A stretch of DNA of 64,000 nucleotides, from positions 6,648,851 to 6,712,850 of the forward strand of contig OZ022591.1 in assembly GCA_963669155.1 (NCBI GenBank), read 5' to 3'. The stretch is from Arbacia lixula (lineage: Eukaryota > Echinodermata > Echinoidea > Arbacioida > Arbaciidae). Position numbers and translations under genes: made by a program. The first letter of the stretch is position 1; each line of letters opens with the position of its first letter. Positions 14,401 through 54,979 of this stretch are shown here, in pieces. A model generated the notes under the pieces. The model saw only the letters and a program-made list of their open reading frames with translations. It ran no database searches and had not been told where the DNA came from.

Positions 14401-17400
14401 TTAAAACAATCCAAAACGACTCGTAATGTTCATATAAAATTTTATATAGTAATTAAATTAAATGATATGATAAATGAATGACAGGACTACTTAGTCGGCG
14501 AGGAAATAAATAAGTGACACGTTTTCTATACATTGTGACGTGGCTAAAACGGCGCCAAAAGAAAACTACAGTGTCCTTAAGAAAACAAACCAGAATATAA
14601 TGTTCACGCTTTTGGTCGCTACACAACTACATGTATGTGTGGTAAAAGAGACTGCTCCCTGATTACGCCATGGCTCCTCTGGCTTCTTCCAGGAGGAGCG
14701 TGGATGGGACTAGGGCGTAGTCTGTGTTACCAGACATACATTTAGTTGTTAACAAACTGGGTTATGTCCATGCACCTCACAGCCTACAGTGTAGTACCTA
14801 GGCTTAACCAAACCCCTGGCAGAATTGCTGTTCTGCTCTAAGTAGAGCCTGTAATCATTACCACTAACATCCCTTACCTTTAGAGCTGAGCTTAGATTTT
14901 TGTTGTTGTTTAACTCTTTGCCCGCCACGCACACTATCTCCCCTGCGCCACATTTATTTCAGGGTGCCACATTCAGAGGGGTTTTGCATGCACGCTCTTA
15001 TTCAACTTGCAATAATTTTTTATTGGTGTGATGAAAAAAAAATGTGTAGCAAAGTCTAAAAGAAATTAATACTCTTGCCAATGGTATCATTTTTGTCATG
15101 TATAATATCATAGATTCTGAGAATTATAACTTTACATTTTGTCTCCAAATTATCGTTTTGGAGGCTATTTTATACCTCTTATATTCAATATGTCCTAATG
15201 AAAGTTATTCTCTAAGTTAGTTCATAAAAAAGATGTCTTCTTTAGCTTTCATTACATACCAAACCCATGTTTTATGGTAATAATGAGTCAAGCAATTTAA
15301 GATTTAAATGGGGCATTCAAAAAGAGTAAGCTAACAATGAACTAAACTCCTCTATTGAAATTGACCCTGGGTACTTCTCAATAGACTTCCTGTCCTGGGA
15401 GACTTCCTGCCTATTGATACTTTGATCCCCTTATGCAATACATGCGTCGCTATTGTATGTGTGTGCGCACAATACAATTAAATGCGTTCCGTATGCATTG
15501 TGCGCGAAATGTGACTTGAGTCGAACTTGGCAGCCCGCTGTATGTGCCGCGAGTCGAACGAAGCGGGCAAAGAGTTAAAGGAACCCTTCTCTGATCTATG
15601 TGTCTTGATATCAATGCAGGACCAGACCAGCGATGACGGCCAGTGGAAGTCCTCGTCGTACCACCTCCATCCTGTGGGTCTTCAAGCTCTTAGATCTACT
15701 ACACAATCACCCTATGGAAAAACATGAAGTCTTAGTGGCACAGGTATTTTGGGGGGTGCAATATTTTGTACTACATTATGTAATTTTCTGAATTTTTTTA
15801 TTTATTCATCTATTTCTTTTCTTTCTTTCTTTTTTTTTTTTTTGGGGGGGGGTACAATATTTTGTACTACGTTATCTAATTTTTGGAATTTCTTCATTTC
15901 TTCATTCTATATTTCTTTATTTGCATTAAAAAGTGAATACAATGTTTAAGTAAATGGTATAGCCTCATATTAAATTACTTTGAGAACCTTAATGTTTTCA
16001 TGTATAACTCATACACAGTAATACACAAATACTGACAACTGTATTTCACATCTTGTAGACTATTTAGAGTGCAACTTATATTCATATATTTGAAAAAGTG
16101 ACTAAATGCTCAAAATACATGTACATTTATGCTAAATAGCATGAAAATTATTAATATTTTGATAAGAAGATGCAAACCGAAGGCCTTAACAATGTTTGAT
16201 CAAAATCAATTTACACGCATCATGTTATGATAATGATGTTCATTTATTAACACTGGCTGTCACTATTGTATACATTTAGTCCCGCTCTAAATCAATCTTA
16301 TGTTATCCATATAATGATTGTGTGGTTGCATCCGCAGGCGTACTGGTTCAGGAGGTGGCACACCAAAGTCAGGCTGCTCAAACTGAAACGCCAAGAGGAG
16401 GAGGACAAATGGAGGAGGTAAGTGTTTGGGTCTCTTGACAAGAGAATTGGTAGATACATCTTAGAGACATGCTGGAGACCAGGGACCATTTTCATGAAAG
16501 CTTTCTAGGCTTGTTGGTCACTACAATGCATGCATTTCGATGCACTTTGGTAACTTACTAGGCTTAGTAAGGTTTCATGAACATGGCCCCTGCACTCAGC
16601 AGTATCAAGTATGTTAGCTGTTAATATCAAGCACGGAGTGTGTCACAAAGATATATGCAGGGGAAAAGGAGAAAATATGATTGTTCCCATTCACATCTGT
16701 AGATTTTTTTTATTGCTAATATCAAATGCAAAATATTGAATTTTAAATAAATGTAATTTGGATTTAGTTAAGAAGTTATAAACTGCAATTAATGATAATG
16801 ATGTCTTTACAATACAATTTCAAATTTCATTTGCTAACTAGAGCGGTCACATTCCATGAGGTCTCCCTCCAACAACAATGCCTCCATCATTGGCTCGCCA
16901 CAGTGAAGTCACGCTCCAAATCAGCTAGACTCCTCTACCAGCAGAGTTTGCTGCAGAAGGGGCTGCGTGCATTCAGGTTTGCTGTGATGAGGAGCAGAGT
17001 GCAGGCAATACAACTGGAGAAGAGGCTAGAGCTGTTAACACTTTCCCATTACTACAGTAAGGTAAGTCAAACCTGTCCCTTAAGACCACCCAAGGGAAAA
17101 CAGAAGAGGTCTGTAAGGACAGGTGGTCTTTATAGAAAGGTGGAATTACATGCACACTTCTCTGAAAGAATTTGAATTAAGTGGATTTTACAAACAGATC
17201 GCCCTCTAAAAATGTATATATCCTCAGGGCTTAGACACAAGCCTCAATGCTGCATTAATTACTCCTTTGAATTTACAAGTATATTTTGTTTCTACAAAGA
17301 AATTTTAGGCATACACCCAGTAGTAAGGATAGTGTGCTCCATCCTGTAAATGAATGAAAAACGAGTCGGACAAAAATCTTGGAACCAGACGGGATTTGAG

Positions 17401-17736: not shown

Positions 17737-20700
17737 TGAAATATAAAAATATATGAAATATATTTTGTCTGTCATGGCACGTGTGTCCTTTCTTTTTTCA
17801 ATCCATACTCCCGCCCTCAACCCATAACCATGAATTAGTAACTGGTAGGAGGTGATCGACTGTGTGAATGATCTTTGACCCAGTGCTAGTAAGTGCGTGC
17901 AGGCAGGCAATACTGCCCAGGAAGTAGAGGTGGTGCGCATACAACTGTGTGTATGATATGGGTGCCGTCGGATATTGGAGAGACCCCTTATACCGTTTGT
18001 ACTTTGTACTTCTTCCTTTATGCGACAGTGGAAGGCCATTGCTGAGGTGCGAAGGGAGAAGGAAACTCTCCTGGAGCAGCTAGCCAGCCAACATGTGACA
18101 GTAAAAGCCTTCAGAGCCTGGAAAGAAGGCTACCAGACACAGCAGAGGATGGGCATAGCTGATCTGCACTATAAGTGAGTTGAGCAGCTCAATCCAATCC
18201 AATAAGCCGCTTTCATAACGTACACACAACTTTCTCCCTGAGTGCGTACAATCACCTGTATCTAGTCAATCAGTTTCAATGAATGGGGTCTATTCTGTAT
18301 CTAGAAGTTGTTGCTAGGCAGACAAACCCGGACAAGCTTTGGGCTTACCATCAGTAACGTATTGTTAGAAAGATGTGATCGCAATTTTGCGTATATAATT
18401 AAAATGGTCTATTCAATGAAGGTACTAATGTATTGCAGCACCGTTAATTAAGTGCGAATGACAGGCACTTACTTAGTTGTCGTCGGGTACAGGAGTACAG
18501 CAGTCCGGAGTGCAGCAGTCAGGAGTACAGTGCAGCAGACCTGTCGTAAGAAATGACCCTCTTGTCCGGTGCTTGAACTCCAACTGGCCTTACTTGTACT
18601 CGGCATCGATCATGAGGGTAATTTTGGGGGGGAGTGGCGCACGCGCCGTGCGTAGTGCCCATTTGATTAAGGTGAGCGGGGGCTATCTCATTGTATTTGG
18701 TGGTGTGTTTATTGTCCGCCGGGTGTTTCCAGGCGACGCTTCATATTTGCATACTGTTTATGCTTCACACCCCCCGGCCCTATAGATTGGCAAATATTTG
18801 GAAATCCTTTATTTTTAAATTGCCAATCTTTGTGTTTTGAATTTGCTATTATCTAGAGTTAAGGAAAACAAACAATATAAAACAAACCAAAACCAAAACA
18901 ATGAAACGTAATCCTGAATCAACAAAAACAACTTTAACTACGTCTCTATTTACAATATTTACAATTAATGAGTTCCTACTCAGTTTACTGAGATGGATAC
19001 TCATTCCTGTCGCCCTAACCTACTTCAGCAGTACAAACGCTGTGCGTTTGTGTAGGTAGCCCCGATTACTTCTGGGAGGGGCATACCGCGAGCCCTGGCG
19101 ACGTAATATCCTACGTCCCCAAGATAGTACGGGGTGTTATATGTACACTCCGGATGCACCTTGAGGTGAGGGGAGTCCGTCTCTAGTAATAGACGGTTCA
19201 GGGGAATTTCCCTCACTGCTGCGAGTTGGTCCTCGTTAAACGAACGGACCTTGCCCGTGATACCAAAGTAGCAGTGAGGGAAAGCTTTGTGCCAGGCATG
19301 GACCATGCCGACGTCACTGCTAAAGCAGTGCAAGTGCACCCGTTGATGGGGGAGGCACTTCCTCTGTAGACGTCGCAATGCCAGCCGGTTTACGACCTTA
19401 CTGAATTTGTCGTCGTCAGCCCCTCGCAAGTGCATCACTAAGATGCGCCCCAGGGTCCCTAGAGCCAGGATCCGGTCCATGAGCTCCTCTTGGTGTCGCC
19501 AAAGGTGTTTTTTTACGGTGAAGTCGAAACCAACTTCACTGATGGCCGACACCCGGGGATTGCATAGGAGCTTCAGGAAGCACTCCCATTGGCCTGGCGT
19601 ATAATCCGCCGCCTTTTTCGGATGGATTCCGATGGCTAATTTCCAATTGGAGTCTACTATTCGGCCCAGGACCTGTTCTTCGAATTCTGGATGGGAGAAG
19701 TTCAAAGGGTCACAGTAATTAAGAACCCCGCCCGTTATGGGAAGATAGTGGTCCGGTTCACGGCCTGGGAGCATCGATTTGCTCACACCTGAAGATAGTT
19801 CAGATAGCCTGTCGGGATGGAAATGGGAGTCAAATCCTGAGACCTCAAGTGAAACCTTTTCTGTCACATTCGACCCTTGAACAGGCATGGCTGGAATGGG
19901 AGCCGACTTCTGGAGTCCGGGCTCTAGTTCTAGTTGGTTAATAGCCCCCCTCTGTTCAGGAGATAGTTTGTCCCACAGGAACACCAGGGGCCGCCAATGT
20001 GCAAGAATTGCCGGGGAGTTGATCGGCTGAAGGGTGGGGACTACCTGTTCCCAACCCTCTTTCTCCCGCAGCAAGCCCATTTCTACCTTGTCAGTTTCGC
20101 TGAGAGGGCTTTGAACAGAGTGCCAGTTTTTGTTGGTATAGTCTATGAGTCCCTCTAGATTGTCTGCGCCTGTGAGGAAGTTTGCCACCATGTGCAAAGC
20201 CTTGGCCCGCTTTGAGAGTGTCTTCGACCATCCTGGGCCGGTATGCTCTTCCTGAGGGCGGAAAAAATCGGGAAGATGGTAATAAACATGCCACCTTAGT
20301 TTGGGGGAGGCATGCCCACAACCTTCAATTGGGCAAACTGACCTGTGCTTCTTTAAACGTTGGTTGCCCCCAGAGGTGGACGGACGTTTTGTCCCTTTTT
20401 TAGCCTGTTCTTCATGATGAATGGGGCTCCGGAAGGGCGACTGGCTGGAGCCAGGAAGCAAGGCACCTTTGCCTGCATCCATCCCGGCTGCCAGCCCTTT
20501 GGGTGCAGGAATCTTCATGTTTTTCCCTACCACAGGCTCAGCCAGAATAGCCAGTGTGTATTTTGCAATTCCCCTACCTCTACCTACTGTGTTATGTGTT
20601 TTAGATTCTATCTCTATCTTGACAGGACTAGTGTTAGTGTTAGGTTCGGTTTCTTCCCCGCTCACCTCACCCTCAAATTCCCTGGACAATGGACTAGGGG

Positions 20701-23700
20701 GAAAGAGATCGATGATGGGATCCATCCTGTGTGGATAGAAGATTAATAACACTGTTGCGTTAATCATTTAAGGAATGGAAATACCTCTAAATTATTTATT
20801 ATTTCCCCGTTATGATTAATCGTCAGATCCCATTGTCCGGTTTTACTTGTTAGTACATTTCTTTAACCTGTCATGATTTACAACGAATCTTGAGTTCCGG
20901 TAGGAGATTCGATAGAGGTAGGGAGAGAGTTTTTTAATTATGGTCGCCGGGCCCTTCCAGGGAGGACACAGTTTCTTTGTCTTCCCTTTTTGAGTGGCCG
21001 TGTCGAGTAAGTAAACTCTGTCGCCCTCTTGGAATTCACGACAATAAACCCTGACATCGTAATCTCTCTTCATGCGCTCTTGGGTCGCGCGGAGCTTATT
21101 CCTAGCAGTTTCATGGGCTCGGGTAAGAGTCTGTGTTAGCTGAGAAACATACTCCTCCTTTGAGCCTGATTCTGCTGCGGACGGAAGAGGAAAGATCAGA
21201 TCTGCTGGCTGATTAGTCTCCCGGCCAAGCATGAGCATGTTTGGGGTGAAGCCTGTGCTTCTGTTCACAGTGGATCGGATAGCCCCAGCTATTTGAAAGA
21301 TAAACTTATCCCATTGGCTTTGAGATTTTCCAATATAACACCTTATAGCCTGCATTAGAGTTCGGTTAAACCGCTCAACTTGTCCGTTTGCAGATGGCCG
21401 ATAAGGTGTGGTTCTGGCTTTATGAATCTGTAAAGCCTCACACACGCTGACAAAAAGTCGGCTCTCAAAGTTTCTGCCTTGATCGGTAAAGATCTGCAGA
21501 GGGCAACCAAAACGACAAAAGAACTCTCCTACGGCTGCATGGGCAGTGGTTTCTGCTGTTTGGGATGGCAAGGGGATACATTCGACCCACTTCGTGAATT
21601 GGTCGACCATTACAAGAATGTGCTCATTACCTTGCGAGGTTTTCGGAGGGGGCCAATGAAGTCAAGGTGTACCCGTTCCATTGGGGCTCCGGCATGATAG
21701 TTCTTCATGGGGTGTCTCCCATACCTCACGGGTTTTTTGTTCTTATTACATGTAGCACAAGCTGTAATGTAGTTCTGTACGTCACGGGACATTCCATACC
21801 AAAAGTACCGGGACCTTATTTTACTGTAGGTCCGGTTTATCCCAGCATGGCCAGCGGATGGAAGGTCATGGTTAAGTTTGATCACTTCATTCCGTAAAGA
21901 ATGTGGTACCACTAACAGGTCATTGGCTTCATCTTTCCTCCAGATGAGGCCATCTTTCATATGAAACAAATCCCGGTTCACCCAGAGAAATTTTCCACCT
22001 TGATCCCATAACATGAGGGTACCTTCATCTGGTTCCTCATTGGATACCAGCCACTTTCGTAAGTGCTTTAGCTGATCGTCGGCCTCTTGCTCCTTTTGCA
22101 AGCGTTCTTGAGATGTGAGACCCTCCTCACCATCGTTAGCCGGAGGCCCACAATCATCGTCAACCCTAGGGTCTTCCACTGTTACCCCACTGACGGATAT
22201 GATAGGCTCCCCTACAGTGGAAAGGATATCCATGTGGGTAACATTGTAGTCTAAGTCCTCGGGGCGACTCAAAGTGATTTCTGAGACTTGCTTCGACTTT
22301 GTAGCTAGTGAGATAACATCGTCCACAGTGGCTACGAAATGTGACCAGTTCTGATGGACTTTTTGACAGTAGGAGCATCCACCACAAGGCAACGATTCTG
22401 GGAGACCCCCAAGACGATAACTTTCACAGAGGAACTCATCGTCAGGGACTCTGGAAAGAGCATCCGCATTCTGATGCTTCCTGCCAGGTCTGTGCTCCAC
22501 TTTCATGTCATATTGTCCCAGTTCCTCAAGCCACCGTGCCAGCTGGCCCTGGGGCTCCTTAAAGTTGAGTAGCCATGTGAGGCTTCCATGGTCTGTTCTA
22601 ACCGTAAACGGTTTTCCAAGGAGGTAATGGCGGTACTGACGTGTGAATCTAACAACAGCGAGCAGTTCACGACGGGTGACACAATATCTCCGTTGTTCTG
22701 GAGATAAAGATAGGCTGCCATACGCAATGGCACGCTCTTGTCCACTTTGGACCTGAAGGAGCTCAGCTCCGATTGCTGTGCCAGACGCATCGGTATCCAA
22801 AATGAAAGGGTCAGTCGAGTTTGGTAGGGCAAGAACTGGGGCAGACGTCATCAGTTGCCGGGTATTGTCAAAGGCATCCTGATGTTCTTGTTTCCATTGG
22901 AAAGACTGCTTGCCAGTAAGACCATAAAGAGGTCTTACGGTGTCTGCAAAGTCCTTCAGGAAGGTTCTGTGGTAATTGACGAGCCCTAGGAATTGCTCTA
23001 CCTCTTTAGAGCTAGTGGGTGTTGGCCAATTGACCACAGCTTTAATGTGATCATCTTTGAGGTGGAGTCCATGTCTATCCACTTCTCTGCCCAAGAACTC
23101 GACACGTTGTTGGAAAAGAGAACATTTCTTTGGCTTGAGCTTGAGTTTGTAATCTCGGAAGCGTTCCAATACTTGTCTGAGATTCTTAACATGATCAATG
23201 AAAGAGGCTCCAAGCACCACAACGTCATCTAGGAATGCCAGGGCAATGTCCCAGTTTAAACCCCTGAGGACTAGATTCATCACTCTCGAGAAAGTTGCGG
23301 GGGCGTTGCAGAGGCCGAAGCCCATGCGTACGAACTCGTAAAGGCCATGCCTTGTGATAAAGGCCGTTTTTTCACGATCTTCTTTCTTGAGTCTTATCTG
23401 CCAGTAGGCAGAATTGGCATCCAGTTTCGAGAACCATATATTCCCAGAAAGGGTGTCTAAGCATTCCTCCATGCATGGCAAGGGGTAGACATCTTTTTTG
23501 GTTACATCATTTAACCGTCGGTAGTCAATGCACCACCTTACTCCCCCGTCCCGCTTTCTGACTAGGACAGGAGGAGATGCCCATGCCGATACAGATGGTT
23601 GTATTACCCCTGCTGTTAGCATTTTGTTGAGGTGACTTCGTTCCTCTTGCACGAAGTTCATGGGGGTGCGCCTCATTCTTTGTTTGATTGGCGCTGCGTC

Positions 23701-26700
23701 CCCCGTGTTAATGCCATGTTCTATTTCCGTGAAATTCCCTAGGTCAAATTCATCTCTGGCAAAGACCCCTTCAAATTCTAACAGTAATTCCCTTAGAATT
23801 TCTTGTTGATCTTGGGTAAGGTGTTCGATGGACTGCTCCCAGAGGCCCTGTAAGTGGGCAGGGATTGGAGTCGGCGAAGGTAAGCCAACACCCCGCACTT
23901 GCTTACTGTCCTTGGTTGGTGATGACGCGGAGTCATGCGCATGCATCCTGCCCTCGTTTGGCAGATCCAAGCCTGGTTTAATGGCGGTAGCTTCTAAGGC
24001 TTCCCCAACTACCATGCCTTGTTTCCAACTTAGGGTTCGGTCAGTAGGATTCAGTGCATATAGATCAATGGCTCCTGCTGTTTCATGATACGAGCGGGGA
24101 ATAAGTCCCGGAAGGTCGAAATGTGGTTCAATGATGAACTGCTCCAAAGATTTGTCTAGTGTGCAGGTTACCTTCTTCACAGACATGGGAGGAAGGGTCA
24201 CACTCTGCTTTACCAGTACTTGAGCTATGGAAACACGTTCATTTCTTCCCCAAATCATTGGGATGTCCTTGCCTTGAAATGACAGTTTTGCTCTAGGGAT
24301 GTCGATGGTGGCACTATATTTGCGTAGGAGATCAACCCCAAGTAGCATATCATCTTCGATAGGAGCGATATAGACTACTTCCGTGAGTGAATGTTCTCCC
24401 ATTTTAATGACTATTGGGCCGACAACCAAACCACTCATTTGCATGTCACGGCCAGCCGTGTTTAAAATAACACGTTGAATAACTGGCGGCCTGGGACTAA
24501 GAGTTTGGTAAACCCTATCCGACAGAATAGTGACTTCTGCAGCCGTATCCACTACTGCATTTATCTGCTTGCCATCTATTTGGGCTTCGATGCTAAACAT
24601 TGAAGACGTCTTGAGCTGACAGACGATGACATCTTCTGGATAGTCATCCATGGTGGCAGATTCTGGTTTGGCTGGTGGGGGCCATGGAGGTAGCACCCAT
24701 GGGCAGGTTATACTAGATGTAGGCTGCCCCTTCCTTTCTACCACGGTAGGCTGCCGCTGAGGGGGTTCTCGGGAGCCTGCACCAGTATTACTCCACGGCT
24801 CTCCAGATACCTTTGCTGAGGAAGCAAGGGTAAATGAAGTAGGGGTGGAACACCCTACCGAGTAACTTTCAACTGTTTCCTCAGTTTGTTTGGATAAGGC
24901 AGGGAATGGGGGCACTACATCTTTCTGGATTGGTGTAAGAACCTGCAAAGAAGTCTGATTAGTGCCCTGGGCTATGTGGATCGGGGTCGGGCTTGTTCCT
25001 CCGATCCCAACTCGTTTCCCGGTTCGTCACCAGCAAATGAAACAGTCTTCACTTGTTCAACTTCTGGACAATCCCGTTTAAAATGGCCGGATTTGCCACA
25101 TTTGAAGCAAGGATTGTCTGGGCCTGGTGACCTCAGTTTTCCTCTGGCCGGGGACGTCCTTCCTGGGGACGACCTGGGTTTAGGAGGATCACTCCTCATT
25201 TGAAGGGTTGTGATGAGCCCTTGCACCATAGAGTGAAGTGTTCCCACCTTTGCTTCGACTGAGTCTAGCTGTCCTTTGACAGAGTTCTGAAACGAATCAA
25301 ATTTCTGTTCCAGTTGGGAGACTCGGGTTTCGAGGCTAAGATCGTAACAGTGAGAAGTAAGTGAAGATGGGAGTGGTATTTCCATCTTCCGCGCTTTCTT
25401 CTCAAGGGGGTCTACACATGTAGATAACTGTCTGATGTCCTTCCGAGGTTTGCCTTGCATTGCCTGTCTGGCATGCTGGAACATTCGGGTAACTCGTAAG
25501 GCATCATCAAGATGTAGGGGTTGATGATTCAGTGTGTGCTGCCCCGCTTCGCGATCAGTCGACCCCTGACAGAAGCGCAGCACCAGCTGCTTCTGCACGT
25601 AACTATCGGGCAGATTGGGGAATGCCTGAGATGCTAAAGCCTGTAGTCGCTCGGCCCACTCTACGCATGATTCTTCGGAAGTTTGCCTTGCATAATTAAA
25701 TTGCACCTGGGCGACTTCCGGGAGTTCCTGTGGAGCAAATCGTTTCTCCAACTTCAGGACTACATCATAATAGCTTATGGCTGGGTCGCGTCTAATCAGT
25801 GAGGCGTAGTACTCGCTGGCTCTCCCATCCAATGCCCAACACAGTTGGTTTTGCCTATGTTGTTCATCCCAATTACTATCATTGGCGAATGATGTAAACT
25901 TGGCAAAAAATGCGTGCCAGCTCCCTGAACCATTAAAGACAATTGTTCTAGGTAAATATGTCCTGGGAGCGGGCTTGGGAGGCATTCTTGAATTTCCTGA
26001 GGAAATGATGGGGGGAACTATCTCGGGCCGGTTTGAACTATGGCCCTGTAGTTCGAGTGAACGCCTAGGCTCTGGCTGGTTGAACAGTGGAACTGTAATG
26101 GAAGAGACATTCTTCTGTCGGGTAGGTCCAGAACCCAGCTTAGATTGATTGGACCTAGGAGCCGGCTTAGGAGGCTGATTCGGTCCGGGATGAGGCAGTG
26201 GTTGGAGCCGGCGGACAGGTGGCGGCGACACCTTTACTGATGCTGAATATCCCCTCTGGTTTCCACCCTGATTGGGATAAAAATCATCATTCCTTAGAGC
26301 ACGAGTTGGGGTCCGATCATAAGTCTGACGAGTATGATAACAATCACGATCGTCAGGGAGATATCGATCACGAATATGAGTACGTCGATCATGATCATGG
26401 GGCTTCCGACCATCAACAAAGACACGCGTTGGGGCACCATTACAACTGTAATGATCATAATAGAGATCATCTCTTGGCCTTCGGGGAAACGGTCCATTAG
26501 ATTGATCCTCTTTTAGCTGCCTTGGGGGCACTTCCATCTGTAACAGAGAAAGCAACTCTCTCAAAAGATGTGAAGCCTCCTGGATGGAGTGCTCCCTTGG
26601 AAGGCGAGACTGTTTTGCAGTCTGGAATGCGGATGGATCATACTGAGGCCCATAAGTTGTCCTGCTACGAGGTTCGTAGTTGTTTTCCTCGTTTTGAGGA

Positions 26701-29700
26701 CCATGCGGGGCTCGCGTTTGCTGCATGTCAACTGGCTGGTCAATTGGAGCAGTTGGCTCTCCATATGTATGCAGTGGCTCTTCCATTGGACCACTTGGCT
26801 CGCCATACATATGCTGTAGCTCGTCCAGGGAGCCACGCTCTGGCACGCTCTGGGTTTGCCTTCCCCCCTCTCCCATTAAGGGTTGTTCAACCTTATTCCT
26901 CTGGGGTGTAGAGGTTCCTTGCTGAGCACCCTGTAATTGTTTAGCTACTGTCGGCCGCGGCGTAGCAATAGGCCTTGTAGCTTGAGGTCTACCGATGTCA
27001 AGTGGTAGGGATTGTCCCTGCTGACCATATGACACAGTAGAGTCAGAGAGTCTTATCGGGAGGGATGCAGCCCTAGGATGTCCTGGTGCCGGAAAACGAT
27101 CATAAGGATACGGGGCAATAGGCGGTGGAGGAGTTCTCCTTCGTGCCTGAGGCACCGGTGAAATTTGCGCGAGTGCATCTGCACCAGCAGGAGTAAAATC
27201 AAAAGCGTCTATCACTTCGTTTAAGTTACGAATATGCGGGACCGAGACTAATAATTCGGGAGTGATGTTTCTGGTAGCTTCGCGTAACGCAAGAATTCGC
27301 TCGGCAGTGGCGGAGCCAATGCCTGGTATTCGTAACAAGTCGTCCCTATCACAAGAATTAATACGGATCTTATCCATTGCGAAGAAAATGAAAACTAAAA
27401 TCCGCAAATGAAATTAATTCAAAGAAAATTGATGAATATTGGTTAGAAAATAGTAGAGAAATACATCAATTACATTCAGCAATAATCATTTGAAATTCAT
27501 TCACCTAATTCAGCAAACCAATCGCAAATTCAAATGATTTGCAATTCAACAGTTAATCAATTATTTGCAAATTTGCAATCGCAAATTGAAATGATTTGCA
27601 ATTAAATAGTTAATCAATTATTTGCAAATTGAAACTGTAAGCATTCATTCAACTATTGCAAATACAAATAGAAAATTACATCCAATTGCTTTCAGTTATT
27701 TGCAAGTTATGAAGTTAACATCAACTATTCCTAATTGGTGACAATAGAGCGGATTCTCCAATTAGCAATTATCTGCAATTATTTCCTAAAGTAGAGAATG
27801 ACAAATTAATCGTTAATTGCAAATTTCCCATCTATCATTCACCAACTGATTTATTGTGACCTATCTAGTGCAGTGTGATAAGTTGATCTTTACCACTGCA
27901 AATGTTTCCGATTTAGAAGTATCAGGAAACAATACTGATTCCAAAAATAAGAGCGAACATCATTAAATGGTAAATGAAAACAGTAATCGAGTCACAAATT
28001 TTAATTGCAAACTGAGAACAACTACATCTACATTAAATGCTAAATGCGACCGCCTGTGATAGCAGAGTACGTAAATCAGTATAAGGAATTGAAACTACAG
28101 GTTTTCCCTTTATATTTACTTATAGAGAACAGTAAGGGAAAGTTATATTCAAGTTAACTCGACCAATATTACATTTTATTTAAAAGCATGCCAATATGAG
28201 AAAGGGCGAATCTATTTAACAGATTTACTTTGCCTCCAATTGTAAATTGGCAACCATCGTCATTCGAGCCGCGTTTTTTACCGCTGGCGCGAAATTCAAA
28301 TAATGTGAGCCGCACCCGAATTCAATGGGCTATTCACAAAAGACAAAGGCAGCCACGTAATGGCGGCAGGTACATGTAAGGCAGCCACACGTAATGGCGG
28401 CAGCTACGTTAGGGCGGAATGTTTCGCATTAAGATAAATAGCTAGTTTAAAGCAAATTACGCCCTATACCCAGCTATTTGATATACACAAACTAATTATT
28501 ATATGCCTACTAACGTATTATGCCTTACCTAAGTTCCTAACACAATTTTTAAATCTATCGGGTATCCCGTGCAGAAAATGTGTTCCTTAAACGGGTTCAA
28601 AATGGTGAGCAATGTTTAACATTTGATCACCAAAATGCTGGAGCTGCTTGCAGCGCCATTAATGTATTGCAGCACCGTTAATTAAGTGCGAATGACAGGC
28701 ACTTACTTAGTTGTCGTCGGGTACAGGAGTACAGCAGTCCGGAGTGCAGCAGTCAGGAGTACAGTGCAGCAGACCTGTCGTAAGAAATGACCCTCTTGTC
28801 CGGTGCTTGAACTCCAACTGGCCTTACTTGTACTCGGCATCGATCATGAGGGTAATTTTGGGGGGGAGTGGCGCACGCGCCGTGCGTAGTGCCCATTTGA
28901 TTAAGGTGAGCGGGGGCTATCTCATTGTATTTGGTGGTGTGTTTATTGTCCGCCGGGTGTTTCCAGGCGACGCTTCATATTTGCATACTGTTTATGCTTC
29001 AGTACTATGGCTACATGTTTGTGACAACACTATAATGAAGTCTAGAGTTTGTTTTTTCATCAAATAATTCAATCGATAATTATACAGCTATCTACATATG
29101 TACATGCATATTCATTGCAATATGTACACTTCTGATTATATCTGCTTATCGAGTCTTACCATGCATTGAAGGCTTAGCTCCAGATACATGAATATTTGAA
29201 TATTCACAAGCACATTGATGTATGTGCATTTCATGATATATTAATTCATTTGTTTATACTCTTGAGTCTATCTACTCCCAAAGTGTGTTAATCTATAGAT
29301 GTTACCAGAAATATGAATATTCATGAGTACTACTGTACCATGCATACTCAGTATGTGTAACTCTTAAATACACTCTCGAGTCTATCTACTCCCATAGTGT
29401 GCCAATACATGGAAGCATCTGCATCCATGTCTATTCAATATGTGTTTCTGTACAACAGAGTGGGTCTACTGAGCAAGCACTTTGACGGCTGGAAAGCTTA
29501 CGTCAATGCCCAGAGACAGAAATTCTACCATGCAGAGATGGCAAGAGTCTACCACGAGGACAGACTGGTGAAGAAGTCATGGAATACCATGGCAACAGTG
29601 TTTGCTGAGAGGCAGAAAGCCAAGAGACAGTACAGGTAAAGTTAGGATAGAACTGTAGGATTAATTTTACTTATTGCATTTACTTTTAGAAATTTTCAAA

Positions 29701-32700: not shown

Positions 32701-35700
32701 CTGTCTATAAAGACCATACTTATTGTTTCTTTCAACTCTTTATGTGTCATGTGAGGATTTTTCATACATGATGCACATAAATCCCATAGAGCATTATTTG
32801 ATTTATTGTGAAGTGTCTTGAGGACTTAATCAAAATGGAAAATGGCATTGTATAAATCTTACCTATTACTATTATTATTTGTGTTTTATTTCCCTTAAAA
32901 TTGATATCTCTACAGGGATCAGATCCTTACCTTCCTCCAGTGTTATTTGTTTTCTTTATTTGTTACATTAAACCAAAATGGAAAATGGCACTGTATACAA
33001 TTTATGTAGTTCATTATCATTCTTATTAGTTATATTCTTTATTTCCCTTTAATTGAATGTCTGTACAGGGATCAGACACATACGCTCCTGCAGTCAAGGA
33101 AGGAAGAAGAAGAGGAGCATCAGGCTAGTCTCATCCACAGCTGTTTCGAGGCGTGGTGCAAGCTGCATGAGAGAGAGGTCAACAGGAAGGGAATCACAGG
33201 TCGTGGGGAGAACAGATGCTTGAGGGAAGCTTTCACTTCCTGGAGGTCAAAGTTCGAAGAAGCAGAGCTGGAGAGGGAGGTTCAACTAGGAGAAGAGGTT
33301 TGTAAGAATTGCTGAAGTAAATTGTAAAACTAAGAACAATTCTACGCTTGTTTTTTCCTTTTGCACATTTCTCTAGGTAATTAATGTCATTGAAACTTTT
33401 GTCTCAAAGACAGTGTGGAACAAAGTCCTAAAACATCAACCTGCAAGGAAAAGTTGATCAAATATGAAATAGTAACATCTGGATTGTATACAGGATTTTG
33501 TCAGTATCCCATTGATCACATTATATTATTTGCTGCTCTTTATATTTTGTTGGGATTTATATGGTTTGAGGTAAGGACAATGAAACAAAAGTTCTTCAGT
33601 TCACAATTTCAAGTGATGTACATATTAAATGCACTATCTAGGTCTTAAGGTCTCAAGATTTTGATTAATTCATCAGACATCTTTTAGTGACTTCTTACAG
33701 AAATTCCAAGGTTTTCTGTTTTTCTTGTGAATCTTTCAGAAGAGAAATCTTGTCCTCCAGAAGATGTTTTTCCAGTCTTGGCGGAGAGTGAGCGGCGATG
33801 ATGCAAAGTCCGATGAAGACAAGTGCGACGTCATCCAAGACAGAATGACTCAGTCTGTTCTGTCTAAAGCATGGAAGCAGTGGAAAGTGTCTCTGGATCG
33901 TGAGCTCAAAGCACGGTAAGACAACTACTTGCAGCCTTATATTTCTAAGGAACAGAGGATTTAATCACTGAGTACAGTGCTCATATCAAACTAAGATTTT
34001 TAAAATTGATGGAATCTGAGAAGTGAAAAAGAGAGCTTTAAAAGCATCACCTGTGTGCTCCATTTATTCCTTATATGTGATGTTATGTTTGGTCCTTGGT
34101 TATTTTACAGATCATTTGAGGAGAGGGTTCATCACCGTCTGCTTCTCAAGGTATTCCTGTCATGGCAACGATACACGCAGCAAAGCATCGCAGATGCCAT
34201 CGACAGATTTGAACAGAGACTCAACGACTCGTGTGCCTCTCTGCCTAGTCCCACTCTCCTGGACACCTTACCTGCATCACTATCTCCACCTTCATCATCA
34301 TCTTCATCATCTGGAGACTCTCCCTCATCATTATCACTAGTGATGGATCACCATGGTAACCAATCGCCATGTCCATATGCCCTGTCTCCATCTCCTCTCA
34401 GGGAGTTGTCGGTGAATGCTGTGCGCAGCCTGGAGCAAGAGCAAGGGAATGGCTTGGGGGTGTCGCCGCCATCAAGTGATGGTCAGTCGCACCATACCTC
34501 TCCTGCTGAAGTGACAAGGACACCATCTCCACTGCACAACCTCCCTCGCCACCGCATGTCCACACTGCGCAGGGTAGAGAACAGCTGGACCCACCTTCAG
34601 CGGGTTGGAGGGATTGGCAAGACTGAGTTTCCTCAAGGAGCGATTGTGAACATCGAAGGGTTTCAGCATTCGTCGGGTCAGCATGTAGATTCGCAGTCCA
34701 GCGTGGATGGTATCGCATCAGTTGCAGACAGCGGTTACAGCGGCAATGGTGCTCCTCCACTTTCGAACGGTGAGTCTGTGAGCAGCCGCGAGGGAGCTTC
34801 TCTGAGGAATGCTAGTCAGGTCACAGAAGGGTGCGAGATGTCGCCTCACCGGAATAACAACAATAGCGGCACACCCCTGGAGGAGGTGCTCACTCGACCC
34901 AGATGTGCATCAAATAGTGCTGAGTTACTGGGTGAAGCAGAGACTGGTAACCCTTCTCACAAGCTACATACTAGTGTTGATGAAGGCATGATGAATGGAG
35001 AGATGGGACAGAGACTGGTGGCTGATAATGGTTTCAGCAATCATGGTAATGTGAGGCGTGGTGTTGTCAATGGAGCTGTACCACATGGAGATCCCGTAGA
35101 GGATCGCCCCCTTGCTAATGGCACTGCTGGTATTCTGCGACAGAGAGAGGAAGAGGAAGAGGAGAAGGAAGATGTCATGGAGGAAACACACAACGGCTTC
35201 TTCAGTAGTTCACCTCGATCAGATGTGACCTTCCCATCTCCCATGGGGTCCACCGCTCCACTCCCAGACAGGCAAACTCTGGCTGCCATTGCAGATAGGA
35301 AGGTAGGTATTGCAAACTTTGGGGCTTTTATGTAACATGTTTCTGGGTGTGTTTTTAGTGCTCACCTTACCTCATGATGTGCAATGTGTGTATTTTTTCA
35401 CAAATAACACATACAAATACTACAGAGCAGTATTTTGTTAAGAACAGAGAGGGTTAGAATGATGTTGTGCATGAATTCATGTAATTTGTAATTGCATGTA
35501 ATTTAGGGAGGGATGCAGGGATGGGGGGGGGGGGATAAATAAACCCTTGAGAATTGTGTTAGGCGACCACCCACCCATACCACACAGGTTACCTTGGGCA
35601 ATTTGTGGCAAAGTTTGACATTGCACTTATAGGGTTTGGGAGAAGGTCAGTTTAAATAAAGTAGCTCTGTATGACTTCCACTGTAATATCTGCTGCCTCT

Positions 35701-54506: not shown

Positions 54507-54979
54507 TCTGGCAAGCCGTTTTAACATTTATTCCTATTTCTTGATATCACGAATTCGATTTCTTGATATCAAGAATTCGACTTCTTGATATCAAGACTTC
54601 GACTTCTTGATATCAAGACTTCGACTTCTTGATATCAAGAATTCGACTTCTTGATATCAAGAATTCGATTTCTTGATATCAAGAATTCGACTTCTTGATA
54701 TCAAGAATTCGATTTCTTGATATCAAGAATTGCCATTGCTTAACTACACAAAACCATTTCTTTATATCAAGAATTCGAATTCTTGATATCAAGAAGTCGA
54801 ATTCTTGATATCACGAATTCGATTTCTTGATATCAAGAAATCATTTTCTGATATCAAGAATTCGAATTGTTGATATCAAGAAATGGTTTTGTGTAGTTAA
54901 GCAATGGCAATTCTTGATATCAAGAAATCGAATTCGTGATATCAAGAAATAGGAATAAATGTTAAAACGGCTTGCCATA
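54507..54979. mobile_element. Palindromic satellite-bearing foldback element
   Basis: Ends TGGCAAGCCGTTTTAACATT and its reverse complement; the whole 470 bases is one inverted repeat. The left arm holds about eight tandem 22-bp units, TTCTTGATATCAAGAATTCGAC, whose first 16 bases are a perfect palindrome. A second paired block (AATTGCCATTGCTTAACTAC) is at 54728-54762 and 54881-54915. CGCTCG at 54501-54506 and 54980-54985 may be the target duplication. No ORF. Confidence 0.85.

What the first reader, a model, noticed from the sequence alone, without database searches (positions are those of the whole stretch)
19025..20767. A gypsy retrotransposon that carries a complete TatD nuclease
The ORF lies between integrase and the 3' LTR inside one element with identical-looking LTRs and target duplications, so it is part of the element and not a captured neighbour. 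The TatD ligand set (HxH, E, H, H, D) is intact, and a C2H2-like finger precedes it. Standard Ty3/gypsy elements have no such enzyme. It could trim cDNA ends, remove RNA primers, degrade competing nucleic acid or counter a host defence; which of these is inference. Invertebrate genes named TATDN2-like may in part be such elements.
Basis: partly seen in the sequence, partly recalled or inferred. Interest (0 to 1): 0.88.

Follow-up and report, generated by a model that had tools for sequence, protein, structure and literature searches.

The report
Jumping gene carrying a DNA-cutting enzyme
A family of retrotransposons in this animal genome carries, as a regular third gene, an intact-looking DNA-cutting enzyme of the TatD type that cells normally use for DNA repair, and natural selection seems to be keeping it working.

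The parts
28660..29001 (-). 5' LTR (342 bp), begins TG, ends TA
   Evidence: 100% identical to 18426-18767; ends set by target duplication in 7 copies
29002..29005 (.). target site duplication GTAC, 5' side of the element
   Evidence: read directly
28641..28658 (-). primer binding site TGGCGCTGCAAGCAGC.., one base after the LTR
   Evidence: read directly; tRNA-Ser is recalled, the genome test did not complete
24972..27407 (-). Gag ORF, 811 aa as listed: N-terminal helix-hairpin-helix (scores at or just under Pfam cut-offs), C-terminal CCHC knuckle
21610..24948 (-). Pol: protease, RT, RNase H, integrase H2C2; frame stops inside integrase in this copy
20843..21610 (-). rest of integrase (core and C-terminus) in another frame in this copy
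19025..20767 (-). ORF3, 580 aa, finger plus TatD nuclease
20276..20335 (-). C2H2-like finger CPIEGCGHASPKLRWHVYYH (residues 145-164)
   Evidence: such a motif in 4 of 5 families' ORF3 tested
19031..19837 (-). TatD domain (residues 311-579)
18768..18780 (-). polypurine tract GGGCCGGGGGGTG just before the 3' LTR
18426..18767 (-). 3' LTR (342 bp)
18422..18425 (.). target site duplication GTAC, 3' side of the element

Best explanation
Shown: this is a recent insertion of a Ty3/Gypsy-type LTR retrotransposon whose lineage carries a third gene, a finger-TatD nuclease, in the place where retrovirus-like elements keep env. Shown by sequence: the group II (HxH) TatD metal site is complete and the domain is under purifying selection. 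Inferred: the protein is made from a separate, in some families spliced, message as a non-structural accessory enzyme; the finger and N-terminal part bind nucleic acid or partners. It acts as a metal-dependent 3' single-strand nuclease, perhaps with AP-endonuclease activity, on the element's own replication intermediates between reverse transcription and integration: trimming 3' overhangs and flaps, or removing deaminated or abasic ends of the cDNA. It raises the yield of integrable cDNA without being strictly needed. Identity and membership about 0.95; this role about 0.35-0.4; the figure below is for the whole statement.
Against: F6 lost the TatD body and still has 4 copies with pol 1412-1414 aa open, so the enzyme is dispensable at least there. 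The window's own family has no good acceptor near the ORF3 ATG (best is rank 37 of 645, at -100) and no GTRAGT donor in the 3.7 kb from the 5' LTR to the end of gag. Residues 1-304, finger included, show no selection signal (11 N: 4 S). No expression or enzyme data. The F4 ORF read has E411 replaced by D, and two of three L028 TatD units have lost the H480 ligand, the first of them D531 too.
Confidence: 0.5

Rival explanations
1. The nuclease acts against the host or against competitors: it degrades foreign or host-derived nucleic acid, R-loops or small-RNA intermediates in the germ line, so that the element escapes silencing or excludes other elements.
For: Loss of medaka tatdn2 raises R-loops in germ cells (PMC12709183, abstract and passages). 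The element TatD has a weak match to the anti-phage nuclease QatD (E 5e-12, below cut-off). Env-like position of a separate protein. Two different internal deletions of F3 (one in L119, L120 and L027, another in L121) removed RT-RH-IN yet kept ORF3, open at 852 aa in three of these four copies, as if the protein were useful apart from pol.
Against: No target known; the QatD match is weaker than that to the general TatD model TIGR00010 (1.7e-30, also below its cut-off). Four deletion copies are few and may be hitchhiking.
Confidence: 0.25
2. ORF3 is a nucleic-acid-binding or structural accessory protein in which the TatD fold serves mainly as a binding platform; catalysis is not what is selected.
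For: F4 has E411 to D; two of three L028 units lose ligands. Long variable N-terminal parts (ORF3 577 to 1373 aa).
Against: All ligands kept in 7 of 7 F1 copies and in the F2 and F3 ORFs aligned; the selection signal sits in the TatD half.
Confidence: 0.15
3. A chance passenger: a host gene fragment caught by one young copy and amplified, of no use.
For: All copies of F1 are young (LTR pairs 0-2 substitutions), so persistence within F1 alone proves little.
Against: Module present in diverged families at 37-49% identity; purifying selection; host TATDN2-like gene only 30-32% identical, no closer than the two bacterial TatDs compared, 30-36%.
Confidence: 0.04
4. ORF3 is a host gene lying beside or inside the element by accident.
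For: A TATDN2-like host gene exists.
Against: Seven insertions at different places, each with its own 4-bp duplication, all contain it.
Confidence: 0.01

Closest known systems
Bdelloid rotifer LTR retrotransposons Juno and Vesta with a DEDDy exonuclease ORF3 (PMC5408684, passages read)
   Same: LTR retrotransposon of animals; a nuclease ORF3 after pol, in env position; invariant residues said to be intact (DEDD changed to DEED); ORF3s described there as typically expressed from spliced messages
   Different: DEDD RNase-D-like fold, not TatD TIM barrel; acquired at least twice there and said to show no significant departure from neutrality; here one TatD clade with a selection signal
Group II TatD nucleases (TATDN2/TATDN3, YcfH, YjjV; PMC10085689 passages)
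   Same: HxH motif, E/H/H/D ligands, fold; TATDN2 has an extended N-terminal region
   Different: cellular genes; here a mobile multicopy gene with a C2H2-like finger and a middle part conserved between families
Ty3/Gypsy elements with captured enzymatic domains, e.g. an m6A demethylase domain in orchids (PMC9289625, search listing only) and additional ORFs of plant elements (PMC7264820, search listing only)
   Same: extra captured domain or ORF in an LTR element
   Different: other enzyme, other kingdom
Troyka (Metaviridae; PMC12440569, passages)
   Same: LTR elements known from echinoderms among others
   Different: Troyka has CG..CG ends and 3-bp duplications; here TG..TA and 4 bp

Membership tests
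Ty3/Gypsy (Metaviridae) LTR retrotransposon | Pol order protease, RT, RNase H, integrase | tested here: met
   Pfam matches in that order over 21610-24948 and 20843-21610
Ty3/Gypsy (Metaviridae) LTR retrotransposon | paired LTRs and short target duplication (4-6 bp) | tested here: met
   342 bp, 100% identical; 4 bp in 7 of 7 copies; the LTR starts TG but ends TA rather than the usual CA
Ty3/Gypsy (Metaviridae) LTR retrotransposon | PBS and polypurine tract | tested here: met
   TGG-type PBS one base after the LTR and GGGCCGGGGGGTG before the 3' LTR in 7 of 7 copies; which tRNA was not tested
Ty3/Gypsy (Metaviridae) LTR retrotransposon | placement of RT in a named Gypsy clade | not testable with these tools
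   no Repbase or GyDB reference set held
TatD nuclease, group II (HxH) | PF01026 above its gathering score | tested here: met
   122.8 bits against 27; also the F2, F3, F4 and F5 ORFs
TatD nuclease, group II (HxH) | HxH, E, H, H, D metal ligands | tested here: met
   7 of 7 F1 copies; E411, H446, H480, D531 invariant with 41 bacterial TatDs (many rows there do not reach the HxH)
TatD nuclease, group II (HxH) | TIM-barrel TatD fold | tested here: met
TatD nuclease, group II (HxH) | metal-dependent nuclease activity | not testable with these tools
   needs protein
orthologue of cellular TATDN2 | closest relative is the host TATDN2 gene | tested here: inconclusive
   30-32% to the TATDN2-like gene on C1, no closer than the two bacterial TatDs compared at 30-36%; in the tree element TatDs stand apart, the split element+host from 12 bacterial rows has 93/91
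bdelloid-type DEDDy ORF3 | DEDD exonuclease domain | tested here: not met
   Pfam lists TatD_DNase only for ORF3, and the domain models as TatD
env-like ORF expressed by splicing | splice acceptor before ORF3 | tested here: inconclusive
   rank 1 AG at an ATG in F2 (of 626) and F3 (of 620; of 495; second in-frame ATG); not in the window's family, rank 37 of 645 at -100; weights recalled, no RNA data

The most novel reading that the evidence does not exclude
There is an old lineage of animal Gypsy elements defined by a finger-TatD ORF3: retrotransposons that bring their own repair-type 3' nuclease to process their cDNA or to fight host nucleic-acid defences. Many invertebrate 'TATDN2-like' gene models are its copies.
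Probability: 0.4. Interest if true: 0.75.

Novelty: new variant of a known kind. Interest (0 to 1): 0.62.

Why it matters
An extra enzyme kept by LTR elements is unusual. Here a DNA-repair-type nuclease is kept across diverged families, with its domain under selection, and is deleted in one related family. That gives a natural comparison of the same kind of element with and without the nuclease, in one genome, and makes the question of what an LTR element gains from a nuclease testable. It also warns that TATDN2-like gene models in invertebrates may be mobile-element proteins.

Tried and rejected
PF01026 family search of the own genome: not completed. PBS-to-tRNA test by pattern: not completed. 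Host-gene-beside-element: rejected by seven insertions, each with its own duplication. Recent capture from the host TATDN2-like gene: no support. A clean duplication for F2: not found; its flanks share a 290-bp repeat. A first 7-copy N/S count was misaligned by indels (27) and was replaced by the codon alignment (11:14). Viral structures: 2 of 107 matches at E 0.001 or better, one of them clear, Yasminevirus A0A5K0U911 (E 8.5e-14), not followed. IMG/VR: 1 of 101 patterned stretches encodes a relative, 26% identical. No named clade could be assigned to the RT. The model gives nothing for residues 1-310 (low confidence); that part was not folded alone.

Papers: that a TatD-bearing LTR element is not in print is claimed only for these searches of the held library: TatD + retrotransposon + gypsy (1 paper, wheat), TATDN2 + retrotransposon (8 papers), TatD + LTR retrotransposon (2), TATDN2 + echinoderm (1), TatD + retroelement (2). 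Three of these papers were read in passages and describe no such element; the others were seen as listings only. PMC12440569, PMC5408684 and PMC6338049 have no occurrence of 'TatD' in the main text held. Searches (0 papers) gave listings only. Repbase and Dfam are not held.
Full report
What is there. The window lies in an unnamed 607-Mb genome at C16:6648851-6712850. Between 18426 and 29001 on the minus strand is one LTR retrotransposon. The LTRs (28660-29001 and 18426-18767) are 342 bp and identical over their whole length. GTAC stands directly outside both. One base inside the 5' LTR begins a TGG primer binding site, and GGGCCGGGGGGTG lies directly before the 3' LTR. Reading inward from the 5' LTR: Gag (HHH motif near the Pfam cut-off, CCHC knuckle), protease, RT, RNase H, integrase, then ORF3, 580 aa. 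In this copy the pol frame breaks inside integrase.

Other copies. The protein search of the genome gives 64 matches, 7 of them full-length at 98-100% identity. I read both ends of the other six. All 7 of 7 copies have their own 4-bp duplication (GTAC, ATAT, GTAC, GTAT, CTAG, GTAT, ACAG); the two LTRs of a copy differ by 0 to 2 substitutions (two pairs also differ by 1 and 6 gap columns), while the six other copies' LTRs are 94-98% identical to the window's. So these are recent, independent insertions. With the window's copy counted and the six others: Gag is open in 6 of 7, pol is one frame in 5 of 7, ORF3 is open in 6 of 7, all three in 4 of 7.

Selection. Over a codon alignment of 7 copies, the TatD domain has 11 non-synonymous and 14 synonymous changes (3 columns with gaps or stops dropped; 74% non-synonymous expected without selection; p 0.0014); residues 1-304 have 11:4, no signal (2 columns dropped); the whole ORF 22:18, p 0.007. 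Gag (6 copies) 34:31 and pol before the break (5 copies) 39:39 behave alike. Pairwise dN/dS: ORF3 0.35, gag 0.31, pol 0.27. The expectation is a simple single-change count with a transition weight of 2, and copies are not independent, so p is rough.

Relatives in the same genome. F2 (C12, L017/L018/L029): RT-RNase H 82%, integrase 75%, TatD 49% identical; LTR about 417 bp. F3 (L023/L024/L032, L025/L026 and others): 71%, 63%, 44%; LTR 223 bp, and in the L025/L026 copy a 4-bp duplication ATAA. F5 (L028): integrase 62% (read through its stops), TatD 41%, decayed, three TatD units in tandem. F4 (L030): TatD 48%, ORF 1373 aa with two fingers; the only pol match found before it is an integrase scrap (39% over 61 residues). 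A finger motif is found in 4 of 5 families' ORF3; not in F5. The 5 element TatDs fall on one side of one branch (100/100 among 20 rows; 100/99 among 18 rows; midpoint rooting only). In F3, one deletion (L119, L120, L027) and another (L121) remove RT to integrase and keep Gag and ORF3; the C10 copy (L025) fuses the H2C2 part of pol in frame to TatD by deletion.

A family without it. RT search: 109 rows, 108 of 965 candidates scored. Fifteen loci are 67% or more identical to the window's RT; 11 of 15 have a call-6 TatD match within about 10 kb. The other 4 are family F6 (72%, pol 1412-1414 aa open). Downstream of F6 pol, one copy has 49 residues of a TatD C-terminus, 78% identical to F5 (E 6e-19; best of 200 shuffled queries 0.018; first seen); a stump is found in 3 of 4 copies, not in the 901 bases read of the fourth (L125). 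So F6 had TatD and lost it. The remaining 93 rows are 54% or less identical; comparing the two tables by eye, none lies within 100 kb of a call-6 TatD match. They are a sample, since most candidates were not scored.

Expression. With a simple acceptor score (recalled weights), the AG directly before the ORF3 ATG is the best of 626 AGs in F2. In F3 the best of 620 and of 495 AGs in two copies directly precedes the second in-frame ATG, 36 nt after the first (these two copies are homologous, not independent); before the first ATG the nearest AGs score lower, with rank 2 at -61 in L023. In the window's family the best AG near the ATG ranks 37 of 645 at -100, and no GTRAGT donor occurs in the 3.7 kb from the 5' LTR to the end of gag. 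So a spliced message is likely for F2 and F3 and unsupported for F1.

Host genes. Searching with a bacterial TatD (41 rows) adds a stretch of a bacterial-looking contig (C506) and a multi-exon TATDN2-like gene on C1 (4 exons read by eye in L129). It is 30-32% identical to element TatDs, no closer than the two bacterial ones compared (30-36%). The source of the element's TatD is therefore open; the split element+host against 12 bacterial rows has 93/91. Clusters on C9 and C3 that look like TatD gene arrays are remnants of F5- and F3-type ORF3 in the parts read.

How it probably works. Shown: position, integrity, conservation, fold, selection. Inferred: E. coli TatD digests ssDNA and RNA from the 3' end, trims 3' overhangs and removes deaminated ends; E91, E201, D203 and H62 matter (PMC4176340, abstract and passages). 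The element has the acidic residues I equate with these (E411, E529, D531) and H382 at the position I equate with H62. A reverse-transcribing element makes 3' overhangs, flaps and hybrids (general knowledge), so its own cDNA is the nearest plausible substrate. A host-directed role is the main rival. Dispensability in F6 argues for an accessory role either way.

What is known. LTR elements with nuclease ORF3s exist in bdelloids (DEDDy; PMC5408684, passages), so the kind is known; the enzyme, its retention across families, the selection signal and the documented loss are what is new here, as far as the searches named go. Repbase could not be consulted and may hold such consensus sequences without the TatD being remarked on.

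Noticed in passing
L017:7486-8439, L023:6847-7818, L122:1-1155: Pol of families F2, F3 and F6 ends in a PHD finger after integrase (E 1.4e-11, 2.7e-10, 1.7e-8); none is listed for the window's integrase.
   Followed up: partly
window 24972-27407 and L017, L023, L025, L027: Gag begins with a helix-hairpin-helix-like motif (scores at or just under Pfam cut-offs), with a similar start in F2 and F3 Gag.
   Followed up: no
L028:4037-8653; L127; L128: TatD parts of decayed elements have become tandem arrays (units about 1.4 to 2 kb, roughly 87-95% alike), which could be mistaken for a host TatD gene cluster.
   Followed up: partly
L115 (G000:C506): Contig C506 looks bacterial (bacterial-type TatD with one in-frame TGA, a YidC-like ORF by eye): contaminant or symbiont in the assembly.
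   Followed up: no
L033 250-540 and L018 1959-2248: The F2 element is flanked on both sides by the same 290-bp sequence, 99% identical, instead of a clear short duplication.
   Followed up: no
L025:5898-9764: An F3 copy with 100% identical LTRs and duplication ATAA has pol fused in frame to TatD by a deletion that removed the integrase core and the finger.
   Followed up: partly
window 16792-17175 and 34055-35335, + strand: Open frames that by eye look like exons of one coiled-coil host gene on both sides of the element, so the element may sit antisense in an intron; no Pfam match.
   Followed up: no
window 43511-44020, 54536-54948: Short tandem-like repeats; and a 110-245-bp dispersed repeat near 530, 1130, 3660, 52390 and 59055 in both orientations.
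   Followed up: no
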